From contig NZ_WYDS01000001.1 of the NCBI RefSeq assembly GCF_009914765.1, forward strand, positions 1 through 64,000: a DNA stretch of 64,000 nucleotides. The letters run 5' to 3'. A program made the translations under genes and the position numbers. Numbering within the stretch: position 1 is the first letter of the stretch; each line of letters begins with the position of its first letter. This stretch comes from Halodesulfovibrio sp. MK-HDV. GTDB taxonomy: Bacteria > Desulfobacterota > Desulfovibrionia > Desulfovibrionales > Desulfovibrionaceae. The notes under the pieces were generated by a model. That model was not told the origin of the DNA and made no database searches. It saw only the letters and a program-made list of their open reading frames with translations. Shown here piece after piece: positions 26,765-43,985 of the stretch.

Positions 26765-27199
26765 ATGTCTCATCTTCGAGCTAAGAACAATTCTTACGGA
26801 AGCTTCTTTGAACGACTAGAAGCAGATGCATCAACTCGGTCGGTGACGCAATGTCCCGACCCCGTTGATGTGGTCGATTCCGTAAAGCGAAATATCGCAC
26901 AGCTTCTTAACACCCGTATGGGCGAATCGCTAAGTGCACCCGATCTCGGGTTGATGGATTTTAATGACGCAACTCTCGGTAGTCAGGATTTGGCTGTACA
27001 GATTCGTCGGGCAATCCGTCATTGCATAGAGCGGTACGAACCGCGGGTGGAAGATATCGATATCAGAGTGTTACCGGACGCAACAACGCCGCTGAAGCTG
27101 AAATTTCATATTGTAGCAACAGTACGTTCTGGCGCTATGCACGACAAAGTGCAGATAGACCTCTTCTTGGATAGTAACAGATCATACAGAGTAAAGTAG
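26765..27199 (+). CDS. tssE: T6SS baseplate subunit TssE
   Basis: gp25-like baseplate protein of 144 residues. It carries the family core SVKRNIAQLLNTRMGESLSAP, then LGLMDFND, and the conserved YEPRVEDIDIRVLP near residue 100. It begins 3 bases after tssC ends and its stop overlaps the GTG of tssF. Confidence 0.93.
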   Translation: MSHLRAKNNSYGSFFERLEADASTRSVTQCPDPVDVVDSVKRNIAQLLNTRMGESLSAPDLGLMDFNDATLGSQDLAVQIRRAIRHCIERYEPRVEDIDIRVLPDATTPLKLKFHIVATVRSGAMHDKVQIDLFLDSNRSYRVK

Positions 27200-28962
27200 T
27201 GCGTGACAGATATTTCAGAGATGAACTCGCTTTCTTGCGAGAGCAAGGTGCCGCTTTTTCAGAAGTGTATCCTCAGCTTTCCCGTTTTCTTAATGCCCGT
27301 ACAACCGACCCTGATGTTGAGCGGTTGTTGGAAGGCTTTGCTTTTCTAACAGGACGCTTACGGGAAAAGGTGGAAGACGAGTTCCCTGAGCTTACGCATT
27401 CAATCATTAACATGCTCTGGCCTAACTACCTGAGGCCTGTTCCTAGCATCAGTATCGTACAGTTTACTCCTGATGAAAAAGCAATCAGCGAACGGCAGAC
27501 TGTGGCGAAGGGAACTAGATTGAACAGTGTGCCTGTGTTCGGAACGACTTGTCAGTTCCGCACCTGTCACGAACTGGATATCTGCCCGATAGTACGTGAG
27601 AAGGTAACAACAACCACAACTCGTGAATCTTCGCATATTGATGTGGACTTACGAATTTTGGGCGATCTCAATGCTGAGAGCGTGGATTTTAATTCGTTAC
27701 GCTTTTATTTAAGCGGTCAAACGTACAGTGCTCAAATGCTCTTTTTGTGGCTCAGCCACTATTTAGAGCGGATTGAAATTATTGCTGGAGACAATGTGTA
27801 TTCATTGCCATCAAGCAATTTCAGAGCTGTAGGATTTGATCCTGCTCACTCCATTTTGCCGTATCCGAAGAACGTGTACGAAGGGTACCGTATCCTTCAA
27901 GAATACCTTGCTTTCCAGGAAGCGTTTTTATTCTTTGATGTACATAACTTCGGTAAAACGTTGCCGCCGGAAACAACTGGTAACGTAACAGTACGTTTTT
28001 GTTTTTCTAAAACACTTCCTGCAGATGTTCGTGTGCGTGATGAAAGTTTTGAGCTGCATTGCACGCCTGTCATTAACCTGTTTACGCATGATGCAGACCC
28101 TATCGATCTGAATGGTAAGAGTACTGAGTATAAAATCGTCCCTTCCAGCAGATTCGCTTCTCATTATGAGATCTTTAGTATCGATAAGGTTCGGGGATGG
28201 CAGGAAAATCAAACAGGCCGCGTTCGCGGTCAGGCGCGTATTTATACGCCATTTGAGAGTTTTCAGCACGAAATTGAACGCGCACAGGATCGAAACACAC
28301 TCTATTACCGCGTACGAGTGAGAGATAGCATCCGTAACGACGGATTTGAACACTACCTGTCATTCGTACGTGGTGATGAGTCTGCCTGTATGAATTTTAG
28401 TGAAGCAGTGTCGCTGGAGTTGACGTGTACAAACAGGCAACTTCCGCTTGAATTAGGAAAAGGGGACATCTGTGTACCCACGGATAGTTCACCGTCTTAT
28501 GCTGAGTTTTCCAACATTACAGAACCAACCGCACCCTTACGCCCAGTGCTGGATGGCAGTCTTCTTTGGACACTTATTTCCAACCTTTCTTTGAACTATA
28601 TGTCGCTGCTGTCTAAAGACGCCTTGTGTTCTGTTTTGCAAGCGTATGACTTTCGAGCTTTGGTCGATAGACAGGCAGAGCGCATTTCCCGTCATAGACT
28701 GGATGGTATTGTGACCATTAATTCTTCACCGGTGGATAAGATTTTACGAGGGCTTCCAGTTCGAGGTTTGCGTTCGGAAATAACGCTTAACCAGTCTGCA
28801 TTCGGGTCAGAAGGTGATTTGTATCTGTTCGGTACAATTCTCAGCCGATTCTTTGCACTCTATGCAAGCATCAATTCATTCCACGAATTGGTGGTGATCA
28901 ACTCGGATAATCAGGAGACCTACACATGGGACACTCAGACGGGAATGCAGCCGTTGATTTAG
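27199..28962 (+). CDS. tssF: T6SS baseplate subunit TssF
   Basis: Baseplate wedge protein (VasA), 587 residues with a GTG start that overlaps the tssE stop. The N-terminus RDRYFRDELAFLREQGAAFS and LEGFAFLTGRLREKVEDEFPEL are family hallmarks, as is SIINMLWPNYLRPVPS near residue 70. With TssG, TssE and TssK it forms the wedge around the VgrG hub. It overlaps tssG by 37 bases. Confidence 0.96.
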   Translation: MRDRYFRDELAFLREQGAAFSEVYPQLSRFLNARTTDPDVERLLEGFAFLTGRLREKVEDEFPELTHSIINMLWPNYLRPVPSISIVQFTPDEKAISERQTVAKGTRLNSVPVFGTTCQFRTCHELDICPIVREKVTTTTTRESSHIDVDLRILGDLNAESVDFNSLRFYLSGQTYSAQMLFLWLSHYLERIEIIAGDNVYSLPSSNFRAVGFDPAHSILPYPKNVYEGYRILQEYLAFQEAFLFFDVHNFGKTLPPETTGNVTVRFCFSKTLPADVRVRDESFELHCTPVINLFTHDADPIDLNGKSTEYKIVPSSRFASHYEIFSIDKVRGWQENQTGRVRGQARIYTPFESFQHEIERAQDRNTLYYRVRVRDSIRNDGFEHYLSFVRGDESACMNFSEAVSLELTCTNRQLPLELGKGDICVPTDSSPSYAEFSNITEPTAPLRPVLDGSLLWTLISNLSLNYMSLLSKDALCSVLQAYDFRALVDRQAERISRHRLDGIVTINSSPVDKILRGLPVRGLRSEITLNQSAFGSEGDLYLFGTILSRFFALYASINSFHELVVINSDNQETYTWDTQTGMQPLI

Positions 28963-29930
28963 ATGCAAGCCCAGTGTGTGCCTTGCCGGAAAATGTCCGG
29001 TCATACAACTTTTACCAGCTTGTGGAGCTGCTGCACAAGCTGGATGGTTCTGATCCAGAAAGCGAAGAGTGGGAATCCACATGTCGCTTGCTGTTCAGTT
29101 CGAGTACCAGTCTGGGGTTTGCAGCTAGTGATGTGCAGGGGATTGAACGAATAAAAGGTGGGGCATGCCGTCTGGAAACAACGTTTCTTGGATTAAATGG
29201 GGCGCAATCACCACTACCGGGATATTATCTCGAAGAAATTTTAACAGAAGGAGACGAGGGACTTCGCAAGGAGTTTCTCAACTTCTTTAACCACCGACTT
29301 GTGTCGCTGGTGTACCGTATCTGGCGAAAATATAGGTACTATATTCGATTTAAGGATAATGCCTCGGATGCCTTCTCAGGCCAGCTATTTGCGTTGGTTG
29401 GATTGGCCGACAAGGGCATGCGAAGTGGAACTTCGATCAACTGGTGCAAAATGCTCGCGTATGCGGGGATGCTTGCAGGACGGAGTCGCTCTCCACAGGT
29501 TGTCTCCGGTATTGTAGGGCATTGTTTCGATTTACCGGATGTATCCATCTTGCAATGGCAGGTGCGTAATGTGCCTATTCCTGCAGAGCAGCGGTTGTTG
29601 CTTGGAAGAAAGAACATCCAGCTGGGTCAAGATACCGTTATTGGCAATTATGTGCGCGACTGCACAGGAAAATTTGTTATTTGTTTGAAAGACTTAACAA
29701 TGGAACGGTTTAGGGATTTTCTTCCTATTGGGAAAGATTTTCAACCGCTCTGTACACTGATTGAATTTATTTTACGGGAACAGATGGCGTATGATTTGGA
29801 GCTTGAACTTAAACCGGATGAAGCGTTCCCGATTTGTCTCGATAAAAAGTACGGCGCGTTATTAGGCTGGTCTTCATTTATGGGTGACATAACGAAGAAT
29901 CGGCGCGTGCGAATCCAGATTAGGCTTTAG
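28926..29930 (+). CDS. tssG: T6SS baseplate subunit TssG
   Basis: Baseplate protein (VasB) of 334 residues. Landmarks: NFYQLVELLHKL near residue 28, the LNGAQSPLPGYYLEEIL segment near 97, FFNHRLVSLVYRIWRKYRY near 123, and a C-terminal domain ending in RVRIQIRL. The start ATG lies inside the 3' end of tssF, so the two are translated together. Confidence 0.94.
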   Translation: MGHSDGNAAVDLDASPVCALPENVRSYNFYQLVELLHKLDGSDPESEEWESTCRLLFSSSTSLGFAASDVQGIERIKGGACRLETTFLGLNGAQSPLPGYYLEEILTEGDEGLRKEFLNFFNHRLVSLVYRIWRKYRYYIRFKDNASDAFSGQLFALVGLADKGMRSGTSINWCKMLAYAGMLAGRSRSPQVVSGIVGHCFDLPDVSILQWQVRNVPIPAEQRLLLGRKNIQLGQDTVIGNYVRDCTGKFVICLKDLTMERFRDFLPIGKDFQPLCTLIEFILREQMAYDLELELKPDEAFPICLDKKYGALLGWSSFMGDITKNRRVRIQIRL

Positions 29931-29938
29931 AGGAACAT

Positions 29939-31291
29939 ATGATGTCAGAGCAACAATGTATCACATTAGTAGTCACGAATACTCAGGTGCTTGAAGCTGG
30001 GTTGTCCGCAACAAAAACATTTTACGCTAAGGGTGGCTCCATTGGTGCCAGTCCTGGTGATGACTGGAATCTGCGTGACAGGAAAGGGAAAGTTCGCCTT
30101 TCACATTGCAAAATTTCAGTTATTGATGGCGAATTTTGTATCACTGATACCAGTGATGCAACTTACGTAAACGGTGCTTCTATGCCTGTTGGCTGGGGAA
30201 AACATGCCCAGTTGAACGATAACGACACCGTTGCAATCGGTCCGTACGAAATGCGAGTGCATTTTGCCGATGAAGATGAAATTTTCGCTGGTAAAACTCG
30301 GTCGTTGAAGCAGGTTTTTGATGATTCTGATAACTCATCACTTTTAGCAGACGGCGTTGCGCAAACTTCGTTTGATTCAACGTTAAGTGATGATAGCGGC
30401 GCGGTGGATGATCCATTAGCTGCGCTGGATGAATTAGAGGGAATGCTTGCCACGGATTTAGATGATTTTTCATTGGATGAACCGAAAGCAGAAGATGATT
30501 CTGCGTTTCTTCTCGCAAAAGATCAGCAGTGGCAAGGTCATTCTGTGACTGTGCAGGCTGATAGTGATTATGAAACAAGTTCTGCCATTTCATTGCAACA
30601 GCAGGCATCACCAAAGGGGCGTGAAATGGATGAAAGTGCACTTGAATCAATAGAACAGGCTGTTGCCGGAAACGGGTATGGCACTGATGCTGGTTCATCA
30701 CACTTTGTGGCCGGTCCTATGCTTCGCGGTCTGGGAGTCTCCATCGGTAAAAGCGAAAATCTTGCCGACATGCAAGTGCTTTCAGAAGAGATAGGGTGCT
30801 CATTACAGGCTGCTGTGAAAGGGCTTTTGAATCTGCACCAACAGGTTGAAGACAGTCGTTACGGTGTCATGAATAAAAACCTTCAGCCTATTGAAGATAA
30901 CCCGCTCCGTCTTGGTCTTCCGTACGATGAAACTATTAAGACTATGTATGACGGCAAACGCAGTCTTGTACATCTTGCTGCTCCTGCCGCGATTGAAGAG
31001 AGCCTTGGCACAGTAAAGAATCATAATGAAGCTGTGCAGATTGCTACTGCGGAAGCGCTCTCTCAAGTGCTCCGTGCTTTTTCACCGGAAGTGTTGATGA
31101 AGCGTTTCACCAGCTATCGCCGTACAAGCTTGCATGAAAGTGAATCTCAGGAAGCGTGGGCATGGAGCATGTACAACAGCTACTATGCTGAGCTTATTTC
31201 AGAACGACAGAAAGGGTTTGAAAAGCTTTTCTGGGAAATTTTTGATCAAGCGTACGACAAAAAATTACGCGAAATGCAGATGGAGTCATAA
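29939..31291 (+). CDS. tagH: T6SS FHA-domain protein TagH
   Basis: TagH/Fha-type accessory protein, 450 residues (449 from ATG 29942, which has better spacing to AGGA). The N-terminal ~100 residues are an FHA domain (GGSIGASPGDDWNL, RLSHCKISVIDGEFCI, TYVNGASMPVGWG). The middle is acidic and low in complexity, and the C-terminal ~200 residues are the conserved TagH domain (MLRGLGVSIGKSE). The first FHA motif reads IGAS where most FHA domains have IGRS, so the phosphothreonine-contacting arginine is absent; the Ser-His and Asn-Gly motifs remain. No PpkA or PppA gene is in the window. Confidence 0.92.
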   Translation: MMSEQQCITLVVTNTQVLEAGLSATKTFYAKGGSIGASPGDDWNLRDRKGKVRLSHCKISVIDGEFCITDTSDATYVNGASMPVGWGKHAQLNDNDTVAIGPYEMRVHFADEDEIFAGKTRSLKQVFDDSDNSSLLADGVAQTSFDSTLSDDSGAVDDPLAALDELEGMLATDLDDFSLDEPKAEDDSAFLLAKDQQWQGHSVTVQADSDYETSSAISLQQQASPKGREMDESALESIEQAVAGNGYGTDAGSSHFVAGPMLRGLGVSIGKSENLADMQVLSEEIGCSLQAAVKGLLNLHQQVEDSRYGVMNKNLQPIEDNPLRLGLPYDETIKTMYDGKRSLVHLAAPAAIEESLGTVKNHNEAVQIATAEALSQVLRAFSPEVLMKRFTSYRRTSLHESESQEAWAWSMYNSYYAELISERQKGFEKLFWEIFDQAYDKKLREMQMES

Positions 31292-31292
31292 T

Positions 31293-31778
31293 ATGAAGTT
31301 ACGACTCATACTTATCATCTGCCTGCTCACTCAGCTGACAGGTTGTGGTTGGTTTTTCGGTGATGATGACGAATTGCCGCAGCTTCCTTCACAAATTTCG
31401 TATTGTGTTTTTGCAGATACAAAAGTGAACCAGAACGTCAGCGGTGAACCGACTCCAATTGGGGTGCAGATTTTCCAGCTGGAAGATGACTCGTTGTTTT
31501 TAGATGTCAGTTACGACGAACTTGTTGAAGAAGAGGACGATGCTCTCGGCAGCAGTTACGTTGATGATTCTGACTATCTTCTGGCTCCCGGACAGTTCAA
31601 GCATACAGAGTTTATTGAGATAGATGACGATACTCGTTTTATCGCTGTATTCGGCAAATATGCAGAGCCGAACAAAGTACAGTGGAAGAAGATTATCCCT
31701 GTTCAGCCTATCAATAAACTGTACCGCTTGATGGTGTATTTGGGACCTGACGAAGTAAAACTGAGCATAGTGGAATAA
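31293..31778 (+). CDS. tssJ: T6SS outer-membrane lipoprotein TssJ
   Basis: Lipoprotein that anchors the TssJLM membrane complex to the outer membrane. 161 residues from ATG 31293, which directly follows the tagH stop. The signal LRLILIICLLTQLTGC ends in lipobox LTGC, with the acylated Cys at 18. The mature part has the TssJ beta-sandwich features, including NVSGEPTPIGVQIFQL and the C-terminal YRLMVYLGPDEVKLSI. Confidence 0.9.
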   Translation: MKLRLILIICLLTQLTGCGWFFGDDDELPQLPSQISYCVFADTKVNQNVSGEPTPIGVQIFQLEDDSLFLDVSYDELVEEEDDALGSSYVDDSDYLLAPGQFKHTEFIEIDDDTRFIAVFGKYAEPNKVQWKKIIPVQPINKLYRLMVYLGPDEVKLSIVE

Positions 31779-31782
31779 TTAT

Positions 31783-33117
31783 ATGTCTGCACGAAATCGC
31801 GTTGTCTGGAACGAGGGGCTCTTTATTAAGCCTCAACATTTTCAGCAACAACAACGCTATAACGAATATTTACTCGATGCACGTGTCACTGCAGCAAGCC
31901 GCTATCTCTATGGTATTTCTGAGCTGTCGTTGAACCCTGAATATTTAAGTTTCGGTCGTATCGCTCTTGAAAGCGCATCAGGCATTATGCCGGATGGTAC
32001 ACCGTTTCGTATTCCTCAGGAAGATACTCTGCCGGAAGCGTTGGAAATTGCATCCAGCGATGTGGCAAGCCAGATTGTGTACCTGACCATTCCTCTCCGC
32101 AGTGACTCTATTACAGAGCTAACGTGGCCAGAAAGCAAAGGTGCCAGCCGCTTCGAAGTTCAAAAACATGAATCTCGCGATATCCATACTCCGCAAGGTG
32201 ACTTAACAGTCATCGATGTAAGCCCAGTTCGACTACGGTTGATGCTGGAACAGGAAGATCGCAGTGCGTATGCCTCAATCGCAATCGCAAGAATTTTAGA
32301 AAAACGACCTGACGGCAGCGTCTATCTCGATCCGGATTTTATTCCGTGTCATCTGGATGTGTGCGCAGTCGCTATGCTGCATCGCTTCATTAGTGAAGTG
32401 GCAGGGCTTATGCGGGAAAGAGCACGCAATATTGCTCAACGTATTGGTTCCCCTAGTCAGGGTGGCGTTGCGGATGTTTCCGACTTTATGCTGTTGCAGG
32501 CACTGAACCGTATTCAGCCTCAGTTACAGCATCTTGCGAAACTGCGCAGTCTGCATCCAGAGCGATTGTACGAAGTGCTTTCTTCATTTTGTGGAGAGTT
32601 CGCGACGTTTACGGATGAAAGCAGAATGCCACCTGAGTTTCCCGGGTACAATCACGACATGCCGGTAAGCTCTTTTGCTCCGGTAATGTCTATGCTCAGA
32701 CAGGCGTTGAGCATTGTGCTCGAACCGCGTGCTGTTTCATTGCAGCTGCAAAAGCGCAAGTTCGGTCTCATGGTTGCTCCTGTGCAGGACCCGTCTCTTA
32801 TCAGCAAAGCCGATTTTATTCTGGCAGTACGTGCGCGTATGCCGCTTGATGAATTGCGTAAGCAGTTTATCCAGCAAACGAAAGTGGCTTCTGTGGAGAA
32901 AATTCGAGAGCTTATTTCTCTTCAGCTTCCGGGCATTCCGGTCACACCGTTGCCGGTTGCTCCTCGCCAGTTACCTTACCATGCAGGATACACATACTAT
33001 CAGCTTGATAAAAGTAACGAAGCTTGGAACATGCTGAATAATTCAAGTGGCTTTGCTCTGCATGTCGCTGGTGATTTTCCAGACCTTGACCTGCAGTTCT
33101 GGGCTATCAGGAGTTAG
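31783..33117 (+). CDS. tssK: T6SS baseplate adaptor TssK
   Basis: Connects the baseplate to the membrane complex. 444 residues, typical length. The N-terminus RVVWNEGLFIKPQHFQQQ is the family signature; SIAIARILEKRPDG and YLDPDFIPCHL lie near residues 165-185, and the C-terminal receptor-binding domain ends in DLQFWAIRS. It sits between tssJ and tssL with gaps of 2-5 bases. Confidence 0.96.
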   Translation: MSARNRVVWNEGLFIKPQHFQQQQRYNEYLLDARVTAASRYLYGISELSLNPEYLSFGRIALESASGIMPDGTPFRIPQEDTLPEALEIASSDVASQIVYLTIPLRSDSITELTWPESKGASRFEVQKHESRDIHTPQGDLTVIDVSPVRLRLMLEQEDRSAYASIAIARILEKRPDGSVYLDPDFIPCHLDVCAVAMLHRFISEVAGLMRERARNIAQRIGSPSQGGVADVSDFMLLQALNRIQPQLQHLAKLRSLHPERLYEVLSSFCGEFATFTDESRMPPEFPGYNHDMPVSSFAPVMSMLRQALSIVLEPRAVSLQLQKRKFGLMVAPVQDPSLISKADFILAVRARMPLDELRKQFIQQTKVASVEKIRELISLQLPGIPVTPLPVAPRQLPYHAGYTYYQLDKSNEAWNMLNNSSGFALHVAGDFPDLDLQFWAIRS

Positions 33118-33119
33118 TT

Positions 33120-33911
33120 ATGAGTGAAGTGTCTGTAGAAAATCCAGAACAGCAAAAGCATTACGATAGTTTGCTGTTCGATGAAGTGAAAAATATTGAT
33201 GCAGATCAGGACTACTGGTTTCAGTTGCGCGGAGAAAATATCAACCCGCTGATTGATGCTGCAACACCACTTATCGGAATGGCATTACGAGTTCGCCGAA
33301 TGTCCAGTTGTGATGATATCGGTGAAATTTATAAGCATACTGTCGGAGAAGTGAAAGCCATTGAGGTGGAGCTGACGGAAGCAGGGTACGAGCATGCAGT
33401 TATTTTGGCGTACCGCTACATTTTCTGCTCATTCCTTGATGAGACTGTGATGAGTACCTGCTGGGGCGCGGAAAGCGTTTGGGCAGAGCATTCACTGCTT
33501 ACCCGATTCCATAATGAGACATGGGGCGGCGAAAAGGTCTTTACGATCTTGTCTCGTTTAGAAAACGAGCCTGCCCGCTACAAAGATTTACTCGAATTTA
33601 TTTATTTATGTCTGAATCTTGGGTTTGAAGGACGATACAGGGTTATGCCTCATGGTCGCGAAGAATATGAAAAGATCATCAACAGATTATTTCTTATGCT
33701 TCAGCGCCTTGAGGACAAGGAACCTCAGGATCTCACCAATGCAACAAACCATGTTGTGAGCACAAAATATCGGTTGAAAAAGCAAATGCCTATCTGGGTT
33801 TTGTTCGGTGGTTTTGTGTTGGCGTGGGGTGCTATTTTCGTCGTTTATTCCGTTCTGCTTCATGCAAAGTCTATGAACGTAATAGAGCAGTTAACTCAGG
33901 TTTTGAAGTAA
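33120..33911 (+). CDS. tssL: T6SS inner-membrane protein TssL (DotU/IcmH family)
   Basis: Inner-membrane partner of TssM. 263 residues: a cytoplasmic helical DotU domain with FRYIFCSFLDETVMSTCWG-like sequence (here YRYIFCSFLDETVMST near residue 100) and GGEKVFTILSRL, then one membrane helix near the C-terminus (MPIWVLFGGFVLAWGAIFVVY). There is no C-terminal OmpA-type peptidoglycan-binding domain, so this is the short TssL form. Confidence 0.95.
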   Translation: MSEVSVENPEQQKHYDSLLFDEVKNIDADQDYWFQLRGENINPLIDAATPLIGMALRVRRMSSCDDIGEIYKHTVGEVKAIEVELTEAGYEHAVILAYRYIFCSFLDETVMSTCWGAESVWAEHSLLTRFHNETWGGEKVFTILSRLENEPARYKDLLEFIYLCLNLGFEGRYRVMPHGREEYEKIINRLFLMLQRLEDKEPQDLTNATNHVVSTKYRLKKQMPIWVLFGGFVLAWGAIFVVYSVLLHAKSMNVIEQLTQVLK

Positions 33912-33921
33912 GGAGTTGGTC

Positions 33922-36690
33922 GTGATACGAGTTGAGTTAAATACACTAATTAGCAAGTTAAATGCTCAGACAAAGTTGGCTCTTGAGCAGGCTGCTTCTC
34001 TTGCCATCAGTCGTCAGAATCCAGAAGTGACTATTGAGCATTTTATGACAACCTTGCTCGATAATCCTCTTTCAGATTTACGTATTCTTCTTTTGCAGTT
34101 TGAACTGGAGCATGAAGTAATTCGGCAGAAAATTGCGGACAGCATGAGCAGAGAAGTGAGCAACGATACATATCCTGCTTTTTCTCCGTTACTTGTTGAG
34201 CTGCTGCAGGATGCTTGGATGCTTTGTTCAACGGAATTGAATGTTACTGAAATTCGTTCCGGAGCAATCTTTCTGGCTGCTCTCATGCGTCCTGACCGCT
34301 ACCTTCCATACAGCCTTATCGCTGCTCTTGATTCGATTAACCGCGAAGCGTTGCGCAAACATTTTGCTCAGCTGACTGCAGATTCATCAGAAACTGATGT
34401 TGTTTCAGACGGTAAGAAATCTGTGCCGATCATGGATGCAGATGCAACAGCTCTTGGTAAGTATTGCGTTAACTTTACAGAACTTGCTCGTAATGACGAA
34501 CTTGACCCTGTGCTTGCTCGTGATGATGAAATTAGCCTGATGATCGACATTCTGTGTCGCCGTCGTAAAAACAACCCGATTATCGTTGGTGATGCCGGTG
34601 TTGGTAAAAGTGCGGTTGTAGAAGGCTTAGCATTACGGATTGTAGCTGAAAAAGTGCCGGCATCTTTGCGCGGCGTAGAGCTTCTTTGTCTTGATTTAGG
34701 CAGATTGCAAGCTGGAGCCGCTGTTAAGGGTGAGTTTGAAAAACGTCTTAAGAATATTATCGATGAAGTAAAAGACTCCGTTACTCCGATCATTCTGTTC
34801 ATCGATGAAGCCCACACTCTTATTGGCGCAGGTAATCAGGAAGGCGGCGGTGATGCTGCTAACTTGCTTAAACCGTCACTGGCTCGTGGTGAGCTGCGTA
34901 CTGTAGCTGCGACCACATGGAAAGAGTACAAAAAATATTTCGAAAAAGATCCGGCGTTATCCCGTCGTTTCCAGCTGATTAAGCTTGATGAGCCATCTGT
35001 CCCGCAGAGCATCGACATCATGCGCGGTCTGCATGGCGTATACGAAAAGGCACATAAAGTGCTTATTAATGATGAGGCACTTCGTGCCGCTGTTGAACTG
35101 TCCGCTCGGTACGTTTCCGGCAGACAGCTTCCTGATAAAGCAATTGATGTGCTTGATACGGCGTGTGCTCGTATCGCCATTAATTTGAGTGCGCCTCCTC
35201 GTCGTTTATCTGAAATTGAAACTCGTAGTTATCAGCGTCAGTTGGAAGTTGATATGTTGAACAGGCAGGCATTGCTTGGACAGCCGGTTGATGAAGAACA
35301 TTTAGAAGGCTTGATTCAAGCAGGTCAAGCCGACCTCGCGGAGCAGCAATCCCTAACAGCAGCATGGGAAAAACAGCGCGCTTTGATTGAAAAAGTCATT
35401 GAGGTGCGTCAGGCAATTCTTGAGACAGATAGTGTTGAACGAAGCTCACAGGCAATGCGGAAGCCCCATTTTGACCTTGTGAGTAACTCCGACATTACAA
35501 GTGGGTCTGATGCACCAAGTGACGAAGCTGTGGGTGACACAGCGATCTCTGAGAATAGTACAATTTTACCGGAAGAGCTGGAAATGCTCCTGCCGGATGA
35601 TGAAGCTCCTTCTTCTACAATGCTGGAGCTGCGTGCAGAATTAGATGAGTTGTATGTTGAACTCGAAACACTCTCACATAAAGATCGTATGGTGCATCAG
35701 GAAGTAGATGCTCAGCAGATTGCAGAAGTTATTGCAGACTGGACAGGCGTACCAGTTGATCAGATGAATACAGATGAGCTTTCCCGTATCACGAACTTGC
35801 CGGACATGCTTGGTGAGGTGATTAAAGGGCAGGATGTAGCCATTGAGCGTATTCATCGCCATATGTTGACTGCACGTGCTGATTTACGTCGCCCTGGTCG
35901 TCCCAAAGGTGCATTCCTTCTGGTTGGCCCGAGTGGTGTAGGTAAGACTGAAACCGTGTTGCAGATTGCAGAACAGCTCTATGGTGGCAAGCAATTTCTT
36001 ACCACCATCAACATGTCTGAGTATCAGGAAAAACATACCGTTTCTCGTCTTATCGGTTCGCCTCCGGGCTACGTAGGATACGGCGAAGGTGGTGTACTTA
36101 CAGAAGCAATTCGCAAGATGCCGTATTCTGTAGTCTTGCTGGATGAAGTTGAAAAAGCGCATCCGGAAGTACTGAACTTGTTCTACCAAGCGTTTGACAA
36201 AGGTGAGCTTGCAGACGGTGAAGGTCGCTTCATTGATTGTCAGAACATCATCTTCTTCCTCACGTCGAACTTAGGGTTCCAGACTATTGTTGATTATGCA
36301 GAATCACCTAATCTGCTTGAAGAAAAATTATATCCTGAGCTGGCAGGGTTCTTTAAACCTGCATTGCTTGCTCGAATGGAAACTGTGCCATACCTGCCGC
36401 TTGGTAAAGAGGTGCTTGAACAGATTATTCGTGGCAAATTAGCCCGTCTCGAAAATGTTCTTACCACTCGTTACAAAGCAGAAGTGTTTATTGACGATGC
36501 GTTGATCAGTGAAATTATGCGACTGGCAACCCGTTCTGAAAATGGTGCCCGAATTTTAGAGGCAATCATCGAAGGACAGGTTCTTCCCCCATTATCACTC
36601 GAATTGCTGAACAAGCTTGCTGCCAGAGAAGAAGTACAAACGGTACGTCTGACAGTTAAAGACGGCGTGTTTGTTGGTGAAGTGGAGTAG
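33922..36690 (+). CDS. tssH: T6SS sheath-recycling ATPase ClpV/TssH
   Basis: AAA+ unfoldase that disassembles contracted TssB-TssC sheath. The start is GTG 33922, six bases after AAGGAG, giving 922 residues. N-domain residues 1-~150, first AAA+ module with [13 protein letters not shown] (near 223) and [13 protein letters not shown], a coiled middle domain, and second module with [13 protein letters not shown] (near 669) and [14 protein letters not shown]. The linker between the modules, near residues 515-560, is longer and more acidic than I would expect. The gene overlaps vasH by one base. Confidence 0.95.
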
Positions 36691-38237
36691 TGAACATGAA
36701 TCAGTGGTTAGCAAGAGCCGTGAATCTGGCTGCTATTCGCGACACTGACGAACTCGTTGAAAAATATGCAGCAGAGCTACGCGAAGAGCTGGGCTTACAT
36801 GCTGTTTGTGTGTTGCTTCCCAGTGCAGACGGGCGAAGGCTTGTTACGCAATACGAGGGAAATGAACTATCATGGGCGGTTGATGATTTTGAAAATCCAT
36901 TTGCTCATGTTCTTCAGAACCCCGAACCAAAATTGCTTGATGAGAAAGATCGTCTGTACTGGTTGAGTGACGCGGCATTCTGCACGCTTATTAAAGACAT
37001 AGGACACGGGGAAAGTGTCCTTATTCAGCCGCTGTTACCGGATACCCCGTCAGTGCACCTTCTTGTTGTGCTGATGGGAAAAACGATAGAACTGAGCAAC
37101 CTGATGCAGTCGGAAACTTGGTTGGAATTCAGCAAGTTTTTTGCTTTGCAATGGCAGGTGGCTTCGGGAATAGAGCGACAGTTGGATAAAGAGTCAGTTC
37201 TCACCGAGTCAATAGCTCGTATCCGTCAGGAAGAGCGTGCCCGCGAAATGTCAGTACGAGTCCGTACTCAATTAATCGGGAATAGCGATGTTATGCAGCA
37301 AGTGCGAGAGCAGGTAATCACCGCAGCCCAATCCGGACTCACAGTGTTGATTCAAGGAGAGACGGGAACAGGTAAAGAACTTGCTGCGCAGGCAGTTCAT
37401 AATATGTCTTCCCGTAGCAACAAGCCTTTTGTCGCTATCAACTGCGCAGCCATTCCTGAAAATCTTCTGGAAAGTGAACTGTTCGGGTACGAACGGGGTG
37501 CTTTTTCCGGTGCTGACAAAGCCAAAAAAGGGCTTTTAGCAGAAGCGGATGGCGGCACATTGTTTCTTGATGAGATTGGTGACATGTCCGTGATGCTGCA
37601 AGCTAAGCTGCTACGGATGCTGGAGACTCGAAAGTTCCGCCCTGTTGGTGCTAAAGATGAAATTCATTCAGATTTTCGTCTGGTAGCGGCAACACATGTT
37701 CATCTACGCGAACAAGTGGAAAGGAACCAGTTCCGATCTGACCTGTATTACAGACTTAATCAATATCCATTAGACCTTCCTTCTTTGGCTGAACGAAAAG
37801 AAGATCTTTCCGAACTCACGTTGCATTTCATTGATGCTTACAACAAAAGCCGCGGCACAGAAGTCACTGGCATACGGTACGCTGCGTTGAAATTTTTACG
37901 TGAGTACGATTTTCCCGGAAACGTACGAGAGTTGCGCAACTTAATTGAATTTTCATGTGCGCAGACAAACTCCGGTGAAGAGATAGATATTATGAGTTTC
38001 GGGAAACGTACGTTTCATAAGAAAACACGGGGTGGGAAAAATTCTTCTTCTAAGACTGAGAAAGAACATCCGTTTTCGCAAATAAAAAATCTACGACAAG
38101 CGTTGCTCAACTATGAAGCAGCGATAATTAAGTCACGATTAGAACTGTACGACGGTAACAAGACCAAGACAGCGGTAAGCTTGAATTTACCAAAGCGGAC
38201 GCTGGCGCACAAATGCCGGAAGTTGGAGATTCAGTAA
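36690..38237 (+). CDS. vasH: sigma-54-dependent activator of T6SS (VasH-like)
   Basis: Bacterial enhancer-binding protein. 515 residues: N-terminal GAF-like sensor region (~1-190), AAA+ domain with Walker [16 protein letters not shown] (near 223), sigma-54 contact loop GAFSGA (near 270), Walker [13 protein letters not shown] (near 288), [11 protein letters not shown]-like R-finger region ([15 protein letters not shown]), and a C-terminal Fis-type helix-turn-helix ending in [16 protein letters not shown]. The loop has Ser where most members have Thr (GAFTGA). Start GTG 36690 overlaps the clpV stop; ATG 36696 is an alternative. Vibrio VasH activates hcp/vgrG operons elsewhere; a similar role is inferred. 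Confidence 0.93.
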
Positions 38238-38239
38238 CT

Positions 38240-38959
38240 ATGAAAACGAAATCAATTTGGACTTGGGGGCTTGTAGGCGGGGCGTTTGTGCTCATGCTGG
38301 TGCTCGCAGTTAATCAGAAAAAGACTCCTGTTGATGATACGGTAATTGCTTCCGTCGAGAATCAGGAGAAAATCACAACAGCGTTGCTTTGTGTCCCGAT
38401 TAAGGCCCGTCTTGCCCGCCTTGCATGTTTTGACAACGTATTTCCTGCAACGATCGATGAGCTGTTGGAAAAAGAAGAAGTTGTAATGAACGAGAAGCCG
38501 CAAGAATGGTTGCGTGCGGAGGCCAGTGAAGCACTGAGAAAGAAAGAAGAAGGGTTTCGCTCTAACAAAAAAGAAACAGAAGATGCCGAACCCAGTATAT
38601 GGTTCACGGCCCGAGCTCAGAAAAGAGAAGGAAAGAAAGGCAAGCAGCCGATTTTGCAGCTTGGTTGTATTGACAAAATTAGCCGCGCTGAAATTCTCCT
38701 CGACGAGCCGATAAAAGATGGGCGCATGTTCATTACCGTTATGGGTGAAGAACCTTTCACGCAGCAATGGACAAGTGACGAATCCGGTTTGGTATTGCGT
38801 CCTGGACGCGGAATTCCTGCCATTCGTGCTATGAAAGCTATGCTGGAATCAAAACCGATAATTATTCGCTCTGACGTTACAGAGGTAGACGAACTTGCAT
38901 TCGATAGCCGTGGTTTGAGCGAAGCAATTGTGCCTATGCGTAATATTTGCGGTTGGTAA
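38240..38959 (+). CDS. tagO: T6SS-associated protein TagO/VasI
   Basis: Accessory T6SS protein of the VasI family, 239 residues from ATG 38240 behind TTGGAG. It begins with a membrane anchor or signal (IWTWGLVGGAFVLMLVLAV). The family motif follows: ALLCVPIKARLARLACFDNVF, with two cysteines likely to form a disulfide (text split: ALLCVPIKARL, then ARLACFDNVF). The C-terminal domain, with VLRPGRGIPAIRAMKAML, is conserved. It lies between vasH and tssA as in V. cholerae (VCA0118). Confidence 0.85.
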   Translation: MKTKSIWTWGLVGGAFVLMLVLAVNQKKTPVDDTVIASVENQEKITTALLCVPIKARLARLACFDNVFPATIDELLEKEEVVMNEKPQEWLRAEASEALRKKEEGFRSNKKETEDAEPSIWFTARAQKREGKKGKQPILQLGCIDKISRAEILLDEPIKDGRMFITVMGEEPFTQQWTSDESGLVLRPGRGIPAIRAMKAMLESKPIIIRSDVTEVDELAFDSRGLSEAIVPMRNICGW

Positions 38960-38968: not shown

Positions 38969-40375
38969 ATGGATATCAAAAAGTACCGTGAACAAATAAC
39001 AAAGGCGATAGAGGGTGAAAGCCCTGTTGGAGACCGGCTGCTCGATGATACCCTTTTAGACTTTGTTGAAAACCAGATGATGAAGATTGGGTCTCTTTCT
39101 CATGCAGATGTGCAATGGGAAGAGGCTGAAAAGGGTGCTCTGACATTACTGGAGAATAAGACCAAGGACGTTAAAATCCTCACGTATCTCCTGCAATGTC
39201 TGCAACATCAGACCACACCGGAAAGATTTACACTTTCTGTGTATGTGCTGGCAGATTTTATGGATGCGTATTGGGATACATGCCATCCAGCTCCGGGGCC
39301 GCGCGGTGCGTTGCCTCGAAGAAAGTTCTACGGGCAGATTATACAGCGGACAGTGAAAGCTGCTGAAAGTCTGGATGGCAACAGTTTTGATTTCGATCAG
39401 AAAGAAGAGCTGGAAAAAGCCATCGTTGTTCTTACACAAGCTGTAAAAAAGTTTGAGCTTCCCGAAGATGGAGTAGAGGGTGTTGAGGCTGCGGTGCGGC
39501 GAAAGCTGTCCGGTGTTAGCCGACAGGACTCCGAATCCAATGCTACAGAAGGACAGTCGACTGCCATTGTAGAGCCTGCGTTTGGCGGCCCTACGAAAGT
39601 GGAAATCGATAGAAGCAGCGATAAAGCTGTTAGGCAGACCTTTTTCAAGGTTGCAGATCTTCTTTCTGATTTGGACGGCGGGCAGGCGTTAAGTTTGCGG
39701 TTACGACGGTTTGCAATTTGGTTCTCCATAGGTGCAGCACCGGATGCAGACAGTAGTGGCGAAACGCAACTTATGCCGGTTTCTGTTGACCGTGTGACAG
39801 AATATGAAGATCAGTTACAGCGTGGTGCTGATCTTGCGCTTTGGCGTAATGTTGAGAAGAGCCTTACCGTTGCCCCCTTTTGGTTAGATGGTCATTATTT
39901 GAGTTTTCGAGTTGCTAGTAAGCTGGGTAAAGAAGACTGGGCTGAAGCGATTCAGTCAGAGGCGCGAGCCTTTGTTTCCAGACTTCCATCACTCCTGCAT
40001 CTTTCTTTTAAGGGCGGCAGTCCTTTTGCAGGAGTAGACGCGGCTCACTGGTTAACAGCTACCTCTGAAAAAAGCAGTGGTGGAGAATCTTCCGGCGGTT
40101 GGGAAGCAATGCGTAGTAATGCATTGGAACTGGCTAAGGAAGGCGGTGTATCTGTTGCATTGGCTCAATTGAATGAAGGGTTGGCGACTGCACGCGAGCC
40201 ACGGGATAAATTTTATTGGCGCATGTTATCTGCTGATGTGATGCACTCACATCAACTCTCTGCCATTGCCCGTCAGGAATACGAAACATTGCTGGATCAA
40301 GTTAGCAAGGTTTCTGTCTCTGACTGGGAACCATCACTTATTCAGCGTTTAAAAACAGGTGCTGACGCAGTATAA
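38969..40375 (+). CDS. tssA: T6SS cap/assembly protein TssA (VasJ type)
   Basis: 468 residues with an N-terminal ImpA domain (GESPVGDRLLDDTLLDFVE near residue 15, then VLADFMDAYWDTCHPAP and RRKFYGQI near 100) and a C-terminal VasJ-type domain (from about 230), which decides how this TssA class acts in tail assembly. It begins 9 bases after tagO. It precedes tssM, as in the Vibrio vas cluster (VCA0119-0120). Confidence 0.92.
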   Translation: MDIKKYREQITKAIEGESPVGDRLLDDTLLDFVENQMMKIGSLSHADVQWEEAEKGALTLLENKTKDVKILTYLLQCLQHQTTPERFTLSVYVLADFMDAYWDTCHPAPGPRGALPRRKFYGQIIQRTVKAAESLDGNSFDFDQKEELEKAIVVLTQAVKKFELPEDGVEGVEAAVRRKLSGVSRQDSESNATEGQSTAIVEPAFGGPTKVEIDRSSDKAVRQTFFKVADLLSDLDGGQALSLRLRRFAIWFSIGAAPDADSSGETQLMPVSVDRVTEYEDQLQRGADLALWRNVEKSLTVAPFWLDGHYLSFRVASKLGKEDWAEAIQSEARAFVSRLPSLLHLSFKGGSPFAGVDAAHWLTATSEKSSGGESSGGWEAMRSNALELAKEGGVSVALAQLNEGLATAREPRDKFYWRMLSADVMHSHQLSAIARQEYETLLDQVSKVSVSDWEPSLIQRLKTGADAV

Positions 40376-40391
40376 GGTTAGGAAGTACGTT

Positions 40392-43300
40392 ATGTTAGGT
40401 AAGATTTTTAAATTTTTGAAAAAAGCTGTCCCGGGGATAAAGTCTGCGATTCCAGTATTGCTTGTGTTGATTGTAATACTGCTCGTTATTGCAATATGGT
40501 GGGCTGGTCCGTGGCTTCAATATAATGAAGAGAATCCTCTACAGTCTGTTTTTGCACGGTCGGTAACAACAATCATATTTGTACTGTCCTGCTTAGCTGT
40601 CTGGGGTCTCGTTCAGTGGCGTACGCTTGCCGGTTACAAAGATGAGCAAGAACGTGAACTGGAGCTTCAGGAAGATCCAATTCAGCGATACGAAGAACGG
40701 CAGGAAGAAGAGCTGGATATGGTTATGAAAGGGCTTAAAGATAGCCTTAATAAACGTAACTATATGTATGCGCTGCCGTGGTATCTTGTTATGGGGCTTG
40801 AAAATGCCGGCAAAACGAGCCTTATCAACCGCTCTGGACATAACTTTGTATTTTCATCAGTCATGCGAGCCTCTGGCAAAAAGACTGAAAATCCATATTC
40901 CTTTGATTGGTGGATCGGTGATGATTCTGTTCTGATTGATCCTGATGGCGAACTGCTTACACAGAACGCGACCAGTGAAGGGGAAAACGGAGAGATGGAA
41001 CGTCGTCTCTGGATGAACTTTCTTCAGTGGCTTGAAAAGACACGTAGTCGTCGTCCTCTTAACGGCGTAGTGCTGACACTTGATGTGGCACACCTTATTT
41101 CTGCAACAAACTCTGAACGACGGGCGTATGCGAGCTTGCTCCGTGCAAGAATTCGCGAACTTATGGAGACCTTATCCATCCGTCTTCCAGTCTACATTTG
41201 TTTGACTAAGCTTGATCTTTTGTACGGCTTTGAACCTTTCTTCCGCCACTATACTCGAGTGCAGCGTGAAGAGGTATTGGGCTTTACCTTTACTATGAAT
41301 TCAGTGGAAGACCTTGATAGCTGGTTGCAAGAATTTGATACTGACTATCAGGGATTCATTACACGAATTAACGATATGCTTCCGGGAGCGCTTCTCAAGT
41401 GCTACGAATCAGAAGATAGTATTGCAATCTATAGCTTCTGCCGTCAGATGGCAGGACTGCACGACGTGTTGAAACGGTTCCTTGAAGAAACTCTTGGAAG
41501 CGATCAGTTCTCAACGTCAGCGTTGGTACGTGGTGTGTACTTTTCCTCAGTATACCAGCAAGGGGTTCCAACAAACGCGTATGTTGATGCAGCATCACGA
41601 AGATACGGTTTAGAGCATACAATCCATAGCGCTCAGCAAGCCAAGAACTCGACGACCTTTTTCACACAAAACTTGTTCGGACGTATTATCTATCCTGAAG
41701 CAGGGATTGCGTCGGATAACTTTAGAGTAGCTAAAAAGAAACGTCAGGTGATGCTTCTTTCTACCGTAATGTGCATTATTGTATCTGTTTTACTTGTTGG
41801 CAGTTGGCAGCGTTACTACATGAAAAACGTTGAACATGCTGATGCTGTGCTTGAGAAGGTAAAAGATTACAACGAGAAGTTCTCTCATGAAATTTTAATC
41901 GACAGTGGTCAAAATATCCTTGGGCCTCTGAACGCAATCCGTGAAGCAACGTTGAAATTTGGTTTCTTCCGAGACAAGTCTCATTACATATCTGATATGG
42001 GATTGTATCAGGGACATACCATCGGACCAGAAGTTGAACAGACTTATCTGAGCCTTTTGGAAAGCCGTTACCTTCCGGCACTTATGAAGCGTTCTGCCGA
42101 AGACTTGGCAGCAGCCGATACAGATGAAGGTAAGCTGGCATCCCTGCGCGTCTTCCGTATGCTTACGGATAAGAGTGGACGTTATAAAGGCTTTGTAGAG
42201 AACTACTTTGCCCGTAAGTGGCAGAAGAGCTATCCGGGTAATAAAGAGACTCAGGAAAAGCTGATGGAGCACCTTCAGTATGCGATGAAGCATACTGATC
42301 TGCAAAAGAAGCGTGATGCAGGTAATAAAGCAGCTGAGGTAGTGTTAAAACCATACGACACGCTAGTAGCAGATGTTCAGAGTGCATTAAATAAAATGCC
42401 TGTTGAGCAACGCGTTTACCGAAATCTTAAGCAAAATGCTTCAGCAGTACTTGGTGCACCGCTTAACCTTGCGACCTCAATTGGCCCAATTTACGATGTA
42501 GTATTCTCGACTCGCGGAAGTGATAATTCAGCATTGCAAATTCCTCGTTTACTCACTCGAAAAGGATATGAAACATACTTTATTCCTAAGTCCGATTCCG
42601 TTTCCGAGTTAGCACTTGTGGATAGTTGGGTACTCGGGCAGACCGCGACAATTAACTTCAGTGAAGAAGACAAACGTGCGCTGCGAGAAAAAATTAGAGA
42701 TCAATACGTTTCTGACTACGTAAACACATGGCGTACTGCCATGAACAATATTGATACTAAGATTTTCCGAGACATTAACAGTGCAGCGTTGGTACTTGAA
42801 AATATTACAGGTAACTCTAATCCGTTTGCTCGTCTGCTGAATGTGTTGACGGAAAATACAAACTTGTTCCCGCCATTACCTGATGATGATCGGGCCCGTG
42901 AAGAGATGATGACATCTCCGCGATACAAAGTTGCAGCAATGATCGACAAACAGTTCGCAGGTGTGAACAGTTTGATCGTGAAAGACGACAGCAAACCTGC
43001 GTACATTGATGAAGTACTCGAAGCTGTGACTCAGCTTCAGTCTTACCTTAAATCAATTGCAGATGCGCCGGATATCGGTAAAGCCGCACTTGAGGCAACT
43101 AAGTCTCGTGTGAACTTGAATAGTGTTGACCCGATTTATGTGTTGCAGCGTATCGCAAGCGGTCTTCCACAGCCATTCGATACTATGATTACAAAAATGG
43201 CTGACGAAAGTTGGTTTGTGGTGAAACAGGAAGCAATTAAGCATTTGGAAGTACGCTGGTCTAACGACGTATACAAAGAGTACGTACAGAAGTTTGCAAA

Positions 43301-43937
43301 TCGCTATCCGTTCAACCCTACAGCACCGAAAGACGTAGCCTTAATTGACTTTGAAAGTTTCTTTGGCCCTTCAGGTACCTTGAGTAAATTCTATGAAAAC
43401 AACCTGAAACTGTTCCTTGATGAAAATATTATCTCTAAGGATACAGAAGGTGGTTCTTCCCTTATCAGGTCTGATGTGCTGGATCAGCTTGCAACTGCTC
43501 AGCGAATTCAACGTGCATTCTTTAACAACAAAGGTGTACTTGATGTTGAATTTACGCTTGAACCAGTCGAACTCAGTCCTACAAAACGCCGAAGCATCAT
43601 CAACGTTGATGGACAGTTTGTAGAATACAGTCATGGTCCTCGTAAGTCAGTTGAGCTTATCTGGCCGAACACACTGCGCGCAGCATCAGCAAGTAAACTA
43701 ACGCTGATTCCTGCAGAGGTTAACAAGTCTCCACGCAGTATTAATATTCAGGGACCATGGGCGTTCTTCCGTCTTCTCGACAAGGGTGAGATTGTGGGTA
43801 CAAGTGTTACCAGTGTTGACTACAGATTCACCATTGATGGTGGAGCAGTTCGATACCGTCTGTACTCAGAAGCGGATAGCAACCCGTTCACATCGGCGTT
43901 GTTCAGATCATTCCGTCTTTCACCGACACTTTACTAA
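40392..43937 (+). CDS. tssM: T6SS inner-membrane core protein TssM (IcmF)
   Basis: Large membrane-complex protein, 1181 residues from ATG 40392. Two N-terminal membrane helices (SAIPVLLVLIVILLVIAIWW and TTIIFVLSCLAVWGLVQW), a cytoplasmic GTPase-like domain with Walker A GLENAGKTSLINRSG (near 134), a third helix near 460 (VMLLSTVMCIIVSVLLVGSW), then a long periplasmic region that binds TssJ. The P-loop is intact, so nucleotide binding is possible. The gene is followed by a strong hairpin before vasL. Confidence 0.96.
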   Translation: MLGKIFKFLKKAVPGIKSAIPVLLVLIVILLVIAIWWAGPWLQYNEENPLQSVFARSVTTIIFVLSCLAVWGLVQWRTLAGYKDEQERELELQEDPIQRYEERQEEELDMVMKGLKDSLNKRNYMYALPWYLVMGLENAGKTSLINRSGHNFVFSSVMRASGKKTENPYSFDWWIGDDSVLIDPDGELLTQNATSEGENGEMERRLWMNFLQWLEKTRSRRPLNGVVLTLDVAHLISATNSERRAYASLLRARIRELMETLSIRLPVYICLTKLDLLYGFEPFFRHYTRVQREEVLGFTFTMNSVEDLDSWLQEFDTDYQGFITRINDMLPGALLKCYESEDSIAIYSFCRQMAGLHDVLKRFLEETLGSDQFSTSALVRGVYFSSVYQQGVPTNAYVDAASRRYGLEHTIHSAQQAKNSTTFFTQNLFGRIIYPEAGIASDNFRVAKKKRQVMLLSTVMCIIVSVLLVGSWQRYYMKNVEHADAVLEKVKDYNEKFSHEILIDSGQNILGPLNAIREATLKFGFFRDKSHYISDMGLYQGHTIGPEVEQTYLSLLESRYLPALMKRSAEDLAAADTDEGKLASLRVFRMLTDKSGRYKGFVENYFARKWQKSYPGNKETQEKLMEHLQYAMKHTDLQKKRDAGNKAAEVVLKPYDTLVADVQSALNKMPVEQRVYRNLKQNASAVLGAPLNLATSIGPIYDVVFSTRGSDNSALQIPRLLTRKGYETYFIPKSDSVSELALVDSWVLGQTATINFSEEDKRALREKIRDQYVSDYVNTWRTAMNNIDTKIFRDINSAALVLENITGNSNPFARLLNVLTENTNLFPPLPDDDRAREEMMTSPRYKVAAMIDKQFAGVNSLIVKDDSKPAYIDEVLEAVTQLQSYLKSIADAPDIGKAALEATKSRVNLNSVDPIYVLQRIASGLPQPFDTMITKMADESWFVVKQEAIKHLEVRWSNDVYKEYVQKFANRYPFNPTAPKDVALIDFESFFGPSGTLSKFYENNLKLFLDENIISKDTEGGSSLIRSDVLDQLATAQRIQRAFFNNKGVLDVEFTLEPVELSPTKRRSIINVDGQFVEYSHGPRKSVELIWPNTLRAASASKLTLIPAEVNKSPRSINIQGPWAFFRLLDKGEIVGTSVTSVDYRFTIDGGAVRYRLYSEADSNPFTSALFRSFRLSPTLY

Positions 43938-43945
43938 ATCATTAC

Positions 43946-43966
43946 ACGGGGGCTTTATGCCCCCGT
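43946..43966 (+). promoter_or_regulatory. hairpin between tssM and vasL
   Basis: Perfect 8-bp stem ACGGGGGC / GCCCCCGT with loop TTTAT and no T-run. It is the only strong hairpin I see inside the T6SS unit, 20 bases ahead of the vasL start. Confidence 0.55.
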
Positions 43967-43985
43967 CTACATTTGTGAGTATGAT

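What the first reader, a model, noticed from the sequence alone, without database searches (positions are those of the whole stretch)
29987..30230. TagH FHA domain lacks the phosphothreonine-binding arginine, and no PpkA/PppA gene accompanies it
The first FHA motif reads GGSIGASPGDDW; the family normally has Arg after the second Gly (GRS). The later Ser-His and Asn-Gly motifs are kept. With no threonine kinase or phosphatase in the cluster, this TagH may work without phosphorylation, as a structural or constitutively active form.
Basis: partly seen in the sequence, partly recalled or inferred. Interest (0 to 1): 0.6.

Follow-up and report, generated by a model that had tools for sequence, protein, structure and literature searches.

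The report
TagH without its phosphate-binding pocket
A protein that in many bacterial "spear gun" secretion machines reads a phosphate switch has here lost the pocket that reads it, as its relatives in Vibrio-type machines have, and the enzymes and target site of that switch appear to be missing too, so these machines probably assemble without it.

Summary
The Arg loss is real, but it is a subgroup trait and part of a larger loss. Window TagH (29939-31291) has Ala37 where FHA domains have Arg. Of 69 TagH clusters compared, 19 lack the Arg; 18 form one TssC clade, the VasI-bearing V. cholerae type. None of the 19 has a PpkA- or PppA-like gene in the stretch examined; all 47 clusters with intact pocket have both. 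TssL differs too: 45 of 47 intact clusters carry an N-terminal acidic-x-Thr-hydrophobic element, against 2 of 21 with a degenerate pocket (chance level). The window genome has no PP2C_2 phosphatase match and one Ser/Thr kinase, a genus-wide gene elsewhere. The domain is still strongly conserved (dN/dS about 0.01, one pair). Best reading: a phosphorylation-independent assembly scaffold after the phospho-threonine switch was dismantled. Limits: at fewest two independent losses, so no significance after phylogeny; no binding data; some clade members gained basic residues near the site. By spacing, the two residues a V. cholerae paper treats as conserved phosphopeptide sites are the substituted ones.

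The parts
29939..31291 (+). TagH / Fha (450 aa)
   Evidence: TIGR03354 276 bits, PF20232 C-terminal domain 134 bits; no PF00498 match listed at E up to 0.1
29960..30268 (+). Degenerate FHA domain, residues 8-110
   Evidence: AF2 model of residues 1-126 with FHA fold (pLDDT 70, 3 sequences; VIA Z up to 10.6 to FHA domains); dN/dS 0.012 against the 85%-identical relative L009, dS near saturation
30047..30049 (+). Ala37 codon at the pThr-binding Arg position
   Evidence: Arg in 47 of 47 intact TagH; A10 S6 G1 H1 in the 18-member clade
30095..30097 (+). Arg53 codon at the Ser position of SxxH
   Evidence: Ser in 47 of 47 intact; V5 R3 L2 H2 and six single others in the clade
30155..30160 (+). Asp73-Ala74 in place of the binding Asn-Gly, with one residue deleted before it
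   Evidence: intact: N 43 and G 47 of 47; clade: gap before it in 18 of 18
30725..31261 (+). T6SS_FHA_C domain, residues 263-441
   Evidence: PF20232 E 6.8e-39
33120..33911 (+). TssL (DotU); its first 47 residues (33120-33260) have no threonine and carry LLFD...DYWFQLRG instead
   Evidence: PF09850
24693..26762 (+). TssB (VipA, 24693-25247) and TssC (VipB, 25287-26762)
   Evidence: Pfam; TssC used for the tree
26765..29930 (+). TssE, TssF, TssG
   Evidence: Pfam
31134..33117 (+). TssJ lipoprotein (ORF 31134-31778, true start probably ATG 31293) and TssK (31783-33117)
   Evidence: Pfam; start by reading
33916..38237 (+). ClpV-type AAA ATPase (33916-36690) and sigma-54 activator at the VasH position (36690-38237)
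   Evidence: Pfam; NCBIfam (NtrC-like matches; those shown are below their cut-offs)
38213..38959 (+). VasI
   Evidence: TIGR03360 126 bits, cut-off 124.2; VasI found in 18 of 69 clusters, the same 18 as the clade-wide Arg loss
38969..45221 (+). TssA (38969-40375), TssM (40359-43937), ImpA_N protein at the VasL position (43986-45221)

Best explanation
This is the TagH of a V. cholerae-type (Boyer sub-group I) T6SS in a Halodesulfovibrio-like bacterium. Its FHA domain keeps the fold but has lost the three elements known to hold phosphothreonine. In this subgroup the whole switch appears dismantled: writer (PpkA), eraser (PppA), mark (the N-terminal Thr of TssL) and reader pocket (FHA). TagH most likely still works as a required cytoplasmic assembly scaffold, contacting the membrane complex or baseplate through its FHA face without phosphorylation. 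Control then lies at transcription (the sigma-54 activator in the operon). Shown: the substitutions, the gene absences in the stretches examined, the TssL change, the strong conservation of the domain. Inferred: that the TssL element is the mark, phospho-independent binding, the partner, and the scaffold role here.
For: Pocket residues: R, S and the NG glycine in 47 of 47 (the NG asparagine in 43 of 47) intact TagH; in the 18-member clade R 0, S 0, that Gly 1, that Asn 1. PpkA-like plus PppA-like genes: 47 of 47 intact clusters (42 within 19 kb; 5 at 21-36 kb on the same contig) against 0 of 19 Arg-lost clusters within the fetched stretch; in those genomes no PP2C_2 match lies within 40 kb on the tagH contig and no listed Pkinase match within 200 kb of the Arg-lost tagH (list cut at its end). 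TssL element: strict pattern 45 of 47 intact (shuffled mean 4.8) against 2 of 21 degenerate (shuffled mean 2.4); looser pattern 42 of 47 against 2 of 21. FHA dN/dS 0.012, C-terminal domain 0.023, linker 0.164 (one pair). Literature: in A. tumefaciens Fha binds TssL pThr14 and R30A S46A abolishes Hcp secretion (PMC3953482, passages); V. cholerae VCA0112 is needed for Hcp secretion (PMC3166118, passages); no ppkA/pppA and no TagH phosphorylation were found there (PMC8993066, section 9 and passages); regulation of the V. cholerae locus in sub-group I does not depend on the PpkA/PppA/Fha mechanism (PMC2660368, passages).
Against: Eighteen of the 19 Arg losses are one clade. With T32, T41 and T62 the best tree needs only two origins of the degenerate pocket and six changes of the TssL element, and the independent-pairs test gives median p 0.5: the co-loss is coherent but not statistically shown. 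In V. cholerae S38A and K54A (by spacing the Arg and Ser positions) reduce Hcp secretion: the face matters, which also fits a rewired phospho-site. The clade has gained Arg/Lys at 46, 88, 104 and 106 in part of its members (8, 12, 8 and 16 of 18), so another basic residue may serve. No binding assay; the pocket loop of the model is under pLDDT 50. One intact cluster (T50) lacks the TssL Thr although PpkA and PppA are present, and T51 has a Thr without the acidic residue. [quoted passage not shown] cholerae VCA0115 among them. PMC2492809 proposed that VCA0112 works with a Ser/Thr kinase (passages). Several Arg-lost clusters lie on short contigs (G191, G569) or near a contig end (G201), and G191 and G569 have a PP2C_2 gene on another contig.
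Confidence: 0.67

Rival explanations
1. Rewired phospho-reader: another basic residue (Arg53 or Arg46 here, Lys54 in V. cholerae) replaces the lost Arg, and the domain still binds a phosphopeptide made by a kinase encoded elsewhere.
For: Arg53 in Halodesulfovibrio and the equivalent Arg in V. salinus; Arg/Lys at 46, 88, 104 and 106 commoner in the clade than in intact TagH; K54A reduces Hcp secretion in V. cholerae; the genome has one kinase with HRD and DFG motifs (motifs read by eye); a review suggests unidentified kinases (PMC10482370, passages). Odds raised from 0.20 to 0.23.
Against: Position 53 is Arg or Lys in only 3 of 18 clade members, and from 37 to 55 no column has Arg/Lys in more than 9 of 18; the basic residue before the His (position 55) falls from 24 of 47 to 1 of 18. 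The TssL element is absent and PppA-like genes are not near. The kinase is in 10 of 10 genus genomes, of which 2 have TagH.
Confidence: 0.23
2. Vestigial domain: the FHA part is decaying after loss of PpkA/PppA and only the C-terminal domain matters.
For: Loss of the binding residues and no PF00498 match; in two members (T40, T49) even the His is gone.
Against: Residues 8-110 are 92% identical to L009 with dN/dS 0.012, residues 32-80 98% identical with dS saturated; clade-specific conserved residues Asn14, Cys67, Thr75; point mutants in this face have phenotypes in V. cholerae.
Confidence: 0.07

Closest known systems
V. cholerae TagH / VCA0112 and its T6SS (Boyer sub-group I)
   Same: Gene order vipA-vipB-tssE-F-G-tagH-J-K-L-clpV-vasH-vasI-tssA-tssM-vasL (V. 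cholerae order partly recalled, partly), no ppkA/pppA; mutated positions spaced 16 apart, as here (S38/K54; A37/R53).
   Different: Different phylum, probably by transfer; A/R instead of S/K. The V. cholerae sequence itself was not fetched.
A. tumefaciens Fha (Atu4335) and P. aeruginosa Fha1
   Same: T6SS Fha/TagH proteins with an N-terminal FHA domain.
   Different: They have the pThr-binding residues (Atu R30, S46) and work with PpkA; pTssL or pFha is the phosphoprotein (passages).
EssC FHA domains of the S. aureus type VIIb system
   Same: FHA fold used as an assembly contact in a secretion machine (FHA2 needed for EssB and EssA association); its authors know of no phosphothreonine or phosphoserine in T7b proteins (PMC9436818, passages).
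   Different: Unrelated machine; domain is part of an ATPase.
GarA / OdhI FHA proteins
   Same: Among the nearest folds (Foldseek E 3.6e-5 and 1.8e-4; Z 10.1 and 9.9). That GarA binds enzymes through its FHA face without phospho-ligand is recalled, not checked.
   Different: Intact pocket and metabolic role (recalled).

Membership tests
TagH (TIGR03354) | Full-length match over the curated cut-off | tested here: met
   276 bits against 120.25, residues 8-444, profile 1-420 of 420
Phosphothreonine-binding FHA domain | FHA fold | tested here: met
   AF2 model, pLDDT 70, VIA Z up to 10.6 to FHA chains
Phosphothreonine-binding FHA domain | Arg of the GR motif | tested here: not met
   Ala37; Arg in 47 of 47 intact relatives
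Phosphothreonine-binding FHA domain | Ser of SxxH and first Asn-Gly | tested here: not met
   Arg53; Asp73-Ala74 with deletion
Phosphothreonine-binding FHA domain | Binds pThr peptides | not testable with these tools
   needs a binding assay
Threonine-phosphorylation-regulated T6SS | PpkA and PppA with the cluster or genome | tested here: not met
   none in the window; no PP2C_2 match in the genome; one kinase, Pkinase plus Lcl_C, genus-wide. Genome 97.29% complete; PP2C families other than PF13672 not searched.
Threonine-phosphorylation-regulated T6SS | TssL N-terminal Thr element (defined here; phosphorylation known only for some species) | tested here: not met
   no Thr in the first 47 residues
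V. cholerae-type T6SS (sub-group I) | VasI and sigma-54 activator in the operon, TssC in the same clade | tested here: met
   The clade was anchored with V. salinus, not with the V. cholerae sequence itself.

The most novel reading that the evidence does not exclude
In V. cholerae-type T6SS the phospho-threonine switch was removed as a unit and replaced by a permanent protein contact: the new, acidic N-terminal element of TssL (LLFD...IDxDxDYWFxLRG; both halves in 13 of 18 clade members and 0 of 50 others) docks on the remodelled, more basic FHA face of TagH without phosphate, which makes assembly independent of an assault signal.
Probability: 0.3. Interest if true: 0.7.

Novelty: new variant of a known kind. 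Interest (0 to 1): 0.5.

Why it matters
How TagH works in T6SSs that lack PpkA is stated as open in the literature (PMC8993066, PMC10482370, passages). The present comparison says that in that subgroup reader pocket, writer, eraser and probable mark are missing together, so a search for an unknown kinase may be misdirected, and that the residues mutated in V. cholerae as 'conserved phosphopeptide' sites are, by spacing, the substituted ones. It turns the question into a simple binding test and gives a sequence rule (GR, SxxH, NG in TagH; N-terminal Thr in TssL) for predicting which T6SSs use threonine phosphorylation.

Tried and rejected
An Arg swap (Arg lost at 37, gained at 53) as a general compensation: rejected for the clade, since position 53 is Arg or Lys in 3 of 18; not excluded for Halodesulfovibrio and V. 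salinus, and other basic gains exist.

Kinase L002 as a hidden PpkA: judged unlikely, since it is in 10 of 10 genus genomes of which 2 have TagH, has an Lcl_C domain and lies on another contig.

Five intact clusters first seemed to lack PpkA/PppA (G607, G614, G416, G484, G367). Whole-genome searches put both genes 21-36 kb away on the same contig.

Regex detection of kinase and phosphatase was too narrow for kinases and gave some chance PP2C-like strings; replaced by profiles built from motif-bearing ORFs of the fetched clusters. The motif patterns are recalled.

Solved TagH structures: none by sequence. The AF2 model rests on 3 sequences and does not settle the pocket. The second structure job was not used.

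Counting the association as significant: Fisher p 6e-17 over clusters ignores relatedness; the independent-pairs test has median p 0.5.

Prior description of the pocket loss: not seen in the listings of searches nor in the passages read, over the held open-access library only. Figures and supplements were not seen, including the FHA alignments of PMC8993066 (Fig. 5a) and PMC3953482 (Fig. 1C).

Rows: 78 clusters were chosen by hand from the hits, leaving out partial matches and near copies. T61 (G459) was dropped from the counts because no TssC, TssK or TssL was found nearby; T41 and T62 were kept apart (Arg kept, His to Gln, NG lost, a kinase but no phosphatase in the stretch).

Failed steps: (script error, repeated); one search took the wrong strand for L014, mended; the tagH read-out covered 44 of 67 loci by pattern and no count rests on it. 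The first two hand-ins of this report were returned (one for a check, one for its format).

Full report
What is there. The window holds a T6SS operon in the gene order vipA, vipB, tssE, tssF, tssG, tagH, tssJ, tssK, tssL, clpV, sigma-54 activator, vasI, tssA, tssM, ImpA_N protein. The genome belongs near Halodesulfovibrio: the closest named record is a Halodesulfovibrio MAG with TagH at 85% identity; the only other relative that this scan returned is Vibrio salinus at 42%. Only 2 of 10 genomes of the genus have TagH. Four clusters from other genera of the same family and order were sampled; they are of the other kind, with intact pocket and PpkA/PppA-like genes. On the TssC tree the two Halodesulfovibrio rows lie inside the clade that holds V. 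salinus; transfer from there is the likely origin (inference).

Observation. Ala37 stands at the Arg position. Against 47 TagH with intact pocket (R 47, S 47, H 47, NG glycine 47 and asparagine 43 of 47), the 18 members of the window's clade have A10 S6 G1 H1 at the Arg position, ten different residues at the Ser position and none of them Ser, a gap in 18 of 18 just before the Asn-Gly site, Gly there in 1 and Asn in 1; the His is kept in 16 of 18.

Fold and constraint. Pfam's FHA model is not listed even at E 0.1, but an AF2 model from three sequences (pLDDT 70; loop 37-42 under 50) matches FHA domains (Foldseek E down to 3.4e-5; Z up to 10.6). Between the window and L009 the domain has dN 0.039, dS 3.2 (near saturation), dN/dS 0.012; C-terminal domain 0.023; linker 0.164; TssG 0.053. 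The domain is not decaying, on this one pair.

Kinase and phosphatase. With profiles built from the fetched clusters, 42 of 47 intact clusters have both genes within 19 kb and 0 of 19 Arg-lost clusters have either. The other five intact clusters have both 21-36 kb away on the same contig. Genome-wide, PP2C_2 is unmatched in 10 of 18 Arg-lost genomes, including the window's, and in 1 of 30 others. In the 8 Arg-lost genomes that have it, it lies on other contigs or over 800 kb away; the tagH contigs of G191 and G569 are short, so nearness cannot be fully excluded there. Hanks-type kinases match in 46 of 48 genomes, so a kinase as such says little. The window genome's single one is a Pkinase-Lcl_C protein found in 10 of 10 genus genomes.

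TssL. In A. tumefaciens PpkA phosphorylates TssL Thr14 and Fha binds it (PMC3953482, passages). [quoted passage not shown] Here, intact clusters carry a short N-terminal element such as DDKTIVIPRPGG, EATVMKPRPG, DRTQFMPRPGGR or DKTVLLDR: by a strict pattern 45 of 47 (shuffled mean 4.8), against 2 of 21 with a degenerate pocket (T05, T06; shuffled mean 2.4); by a looser one 42 of 47 against 2 of 21. The two intact misses of the strict pattern are T50 (Ala where others have Thr, by eye) and T51 (Thr without the acidic residue). That the element is the PpkA mark in these species is inference. The window's clade has another element, L[LM][FY][DEQ] plus xLRG, in 13 of 18 and in 0 of 50 others; the window TssL has no Thr in its first 47 residues.

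Against the reading. The clade has more Arg/Lys than intact TagH at 46 (8 of 18 against 0 of 47), 88 (12 of 18 against 6 of 47), 104 (8 of 18 against 0 of 47) and 106 (16 of 18 against 9 of 47), and less at 55 (1 of 18 against 24 of 47). A new basic site is therefore possible; the novel reading uses the same fact. I lowered the best explanation from 0.70 to 0.67 for it.

How many events. The 18 form one TssC clade (SH-aLRT 100, quick tree with long branches). Row T32 (G177, a different T6SS subtype) lost the Arg separately, and T41 and T62 lost His and NG but kept the Arg. The best tree needs two origins of the degenerate pocket and six changes of the TssL element; independent pairs: median p 0.5. 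The co-loss is a coherent history, not a statistical proof.

Literature. V. cholerae VCA0112 is required for Hcp secretion (PMC3166118, passages). A 2022 study found no ppkA/pppA and no phosphorylation of TagH, and reported that S38A and K54A reduce Hcp secretion, calling these conserved phosphopeptide-binding residues (PMC8993066, section 9 read, passages elsewhere). The spacing of 16 equals that of R30/S46 in A. tumefaciens and of A37/R53 here, so S38 and K54 are most likely the substituted Arg and Ser positions; the V. cholerae sequence was not fetched and the paper's alignment figure was not seen, so this is inference. A 2008 study proposed that VCA0112 acts with a Ser/Thr kinase (PMC2492809, passages). 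Boyer et al. noted that the V. cholerae locus of sub-group I does not depend on PpkA/PppA/Fha regulation (PMC2660368, passages). A review leaves open that V. cholerae TagH binds partners phosphorylated by unknown kinases (PMC10482370, passages). Fha has been called an assembly scaffold in Acidovorax, there with PpkA (PMC12607579, abstract and passages). TagF binds Fha and represses without need of threonine phosphorylation in two species (PMC5995506, passages), so Fha has phospho-independent contacts elsewhere too.

Verdict. A real, subgroup-wide variant of TagH. It remains unproven without a binding test.

Noticed in passing
window 24693-45221: TagH of this T6SS is present in only 2 of 10 genus genomes and its TssC groups with clusters of the Vibrio salinus type, while four sampled clusters of the same family and order are of a different T6SS type: probable horizontal acquisition.
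   Followed up: partly
L002:1486-2853 (G000:C2:90512-91876): A Ser/Thr kinase fused to an Lcl_C domain, next to a cysteine-rich ORF, conserved in 10 of 10 genomes of the genus; function unknown.
   Followed up: partly
G177:C6:110704-112167 (T32): A TagH of another T6SS subtype that lost the Arg separately; its TssL reads SSLLKPTPGG where relatives have a Thr in the N-terminal element.
   Followed up: partly
G569:C178 and G594:C2 (T41, T62): TagH keeping the Arg but with His to Gln and NG lost; a kinase but no PP2C phosphatase in the stretch, and no TssL element: possibly an intermediate state.
   Followed up: no
G386:C8 (T50): Intact TagH pocket with PpkA- and PppA-like genes, but TssL seems to have Ala where others have the N-terminal Thr: the mark may sit on Fha or another protein there.
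   Followed up: no
window 29939-30268, positions 46, 88, 104, 106 of TagH: Arg/Lys at these positions is commoner in the pocket-less clade than in intact TagH; where they sit relative to the former pocket is unknown.
   Followed up: partly
window 28926-28962 and 31134-31291: Neighbouring T6SS reading frames overlap (TssF/TssG by 37 bases; the listed TssJ ORF start lies inside tagH, its likely true start at 31293 is just after tagH).
   Followed up: no
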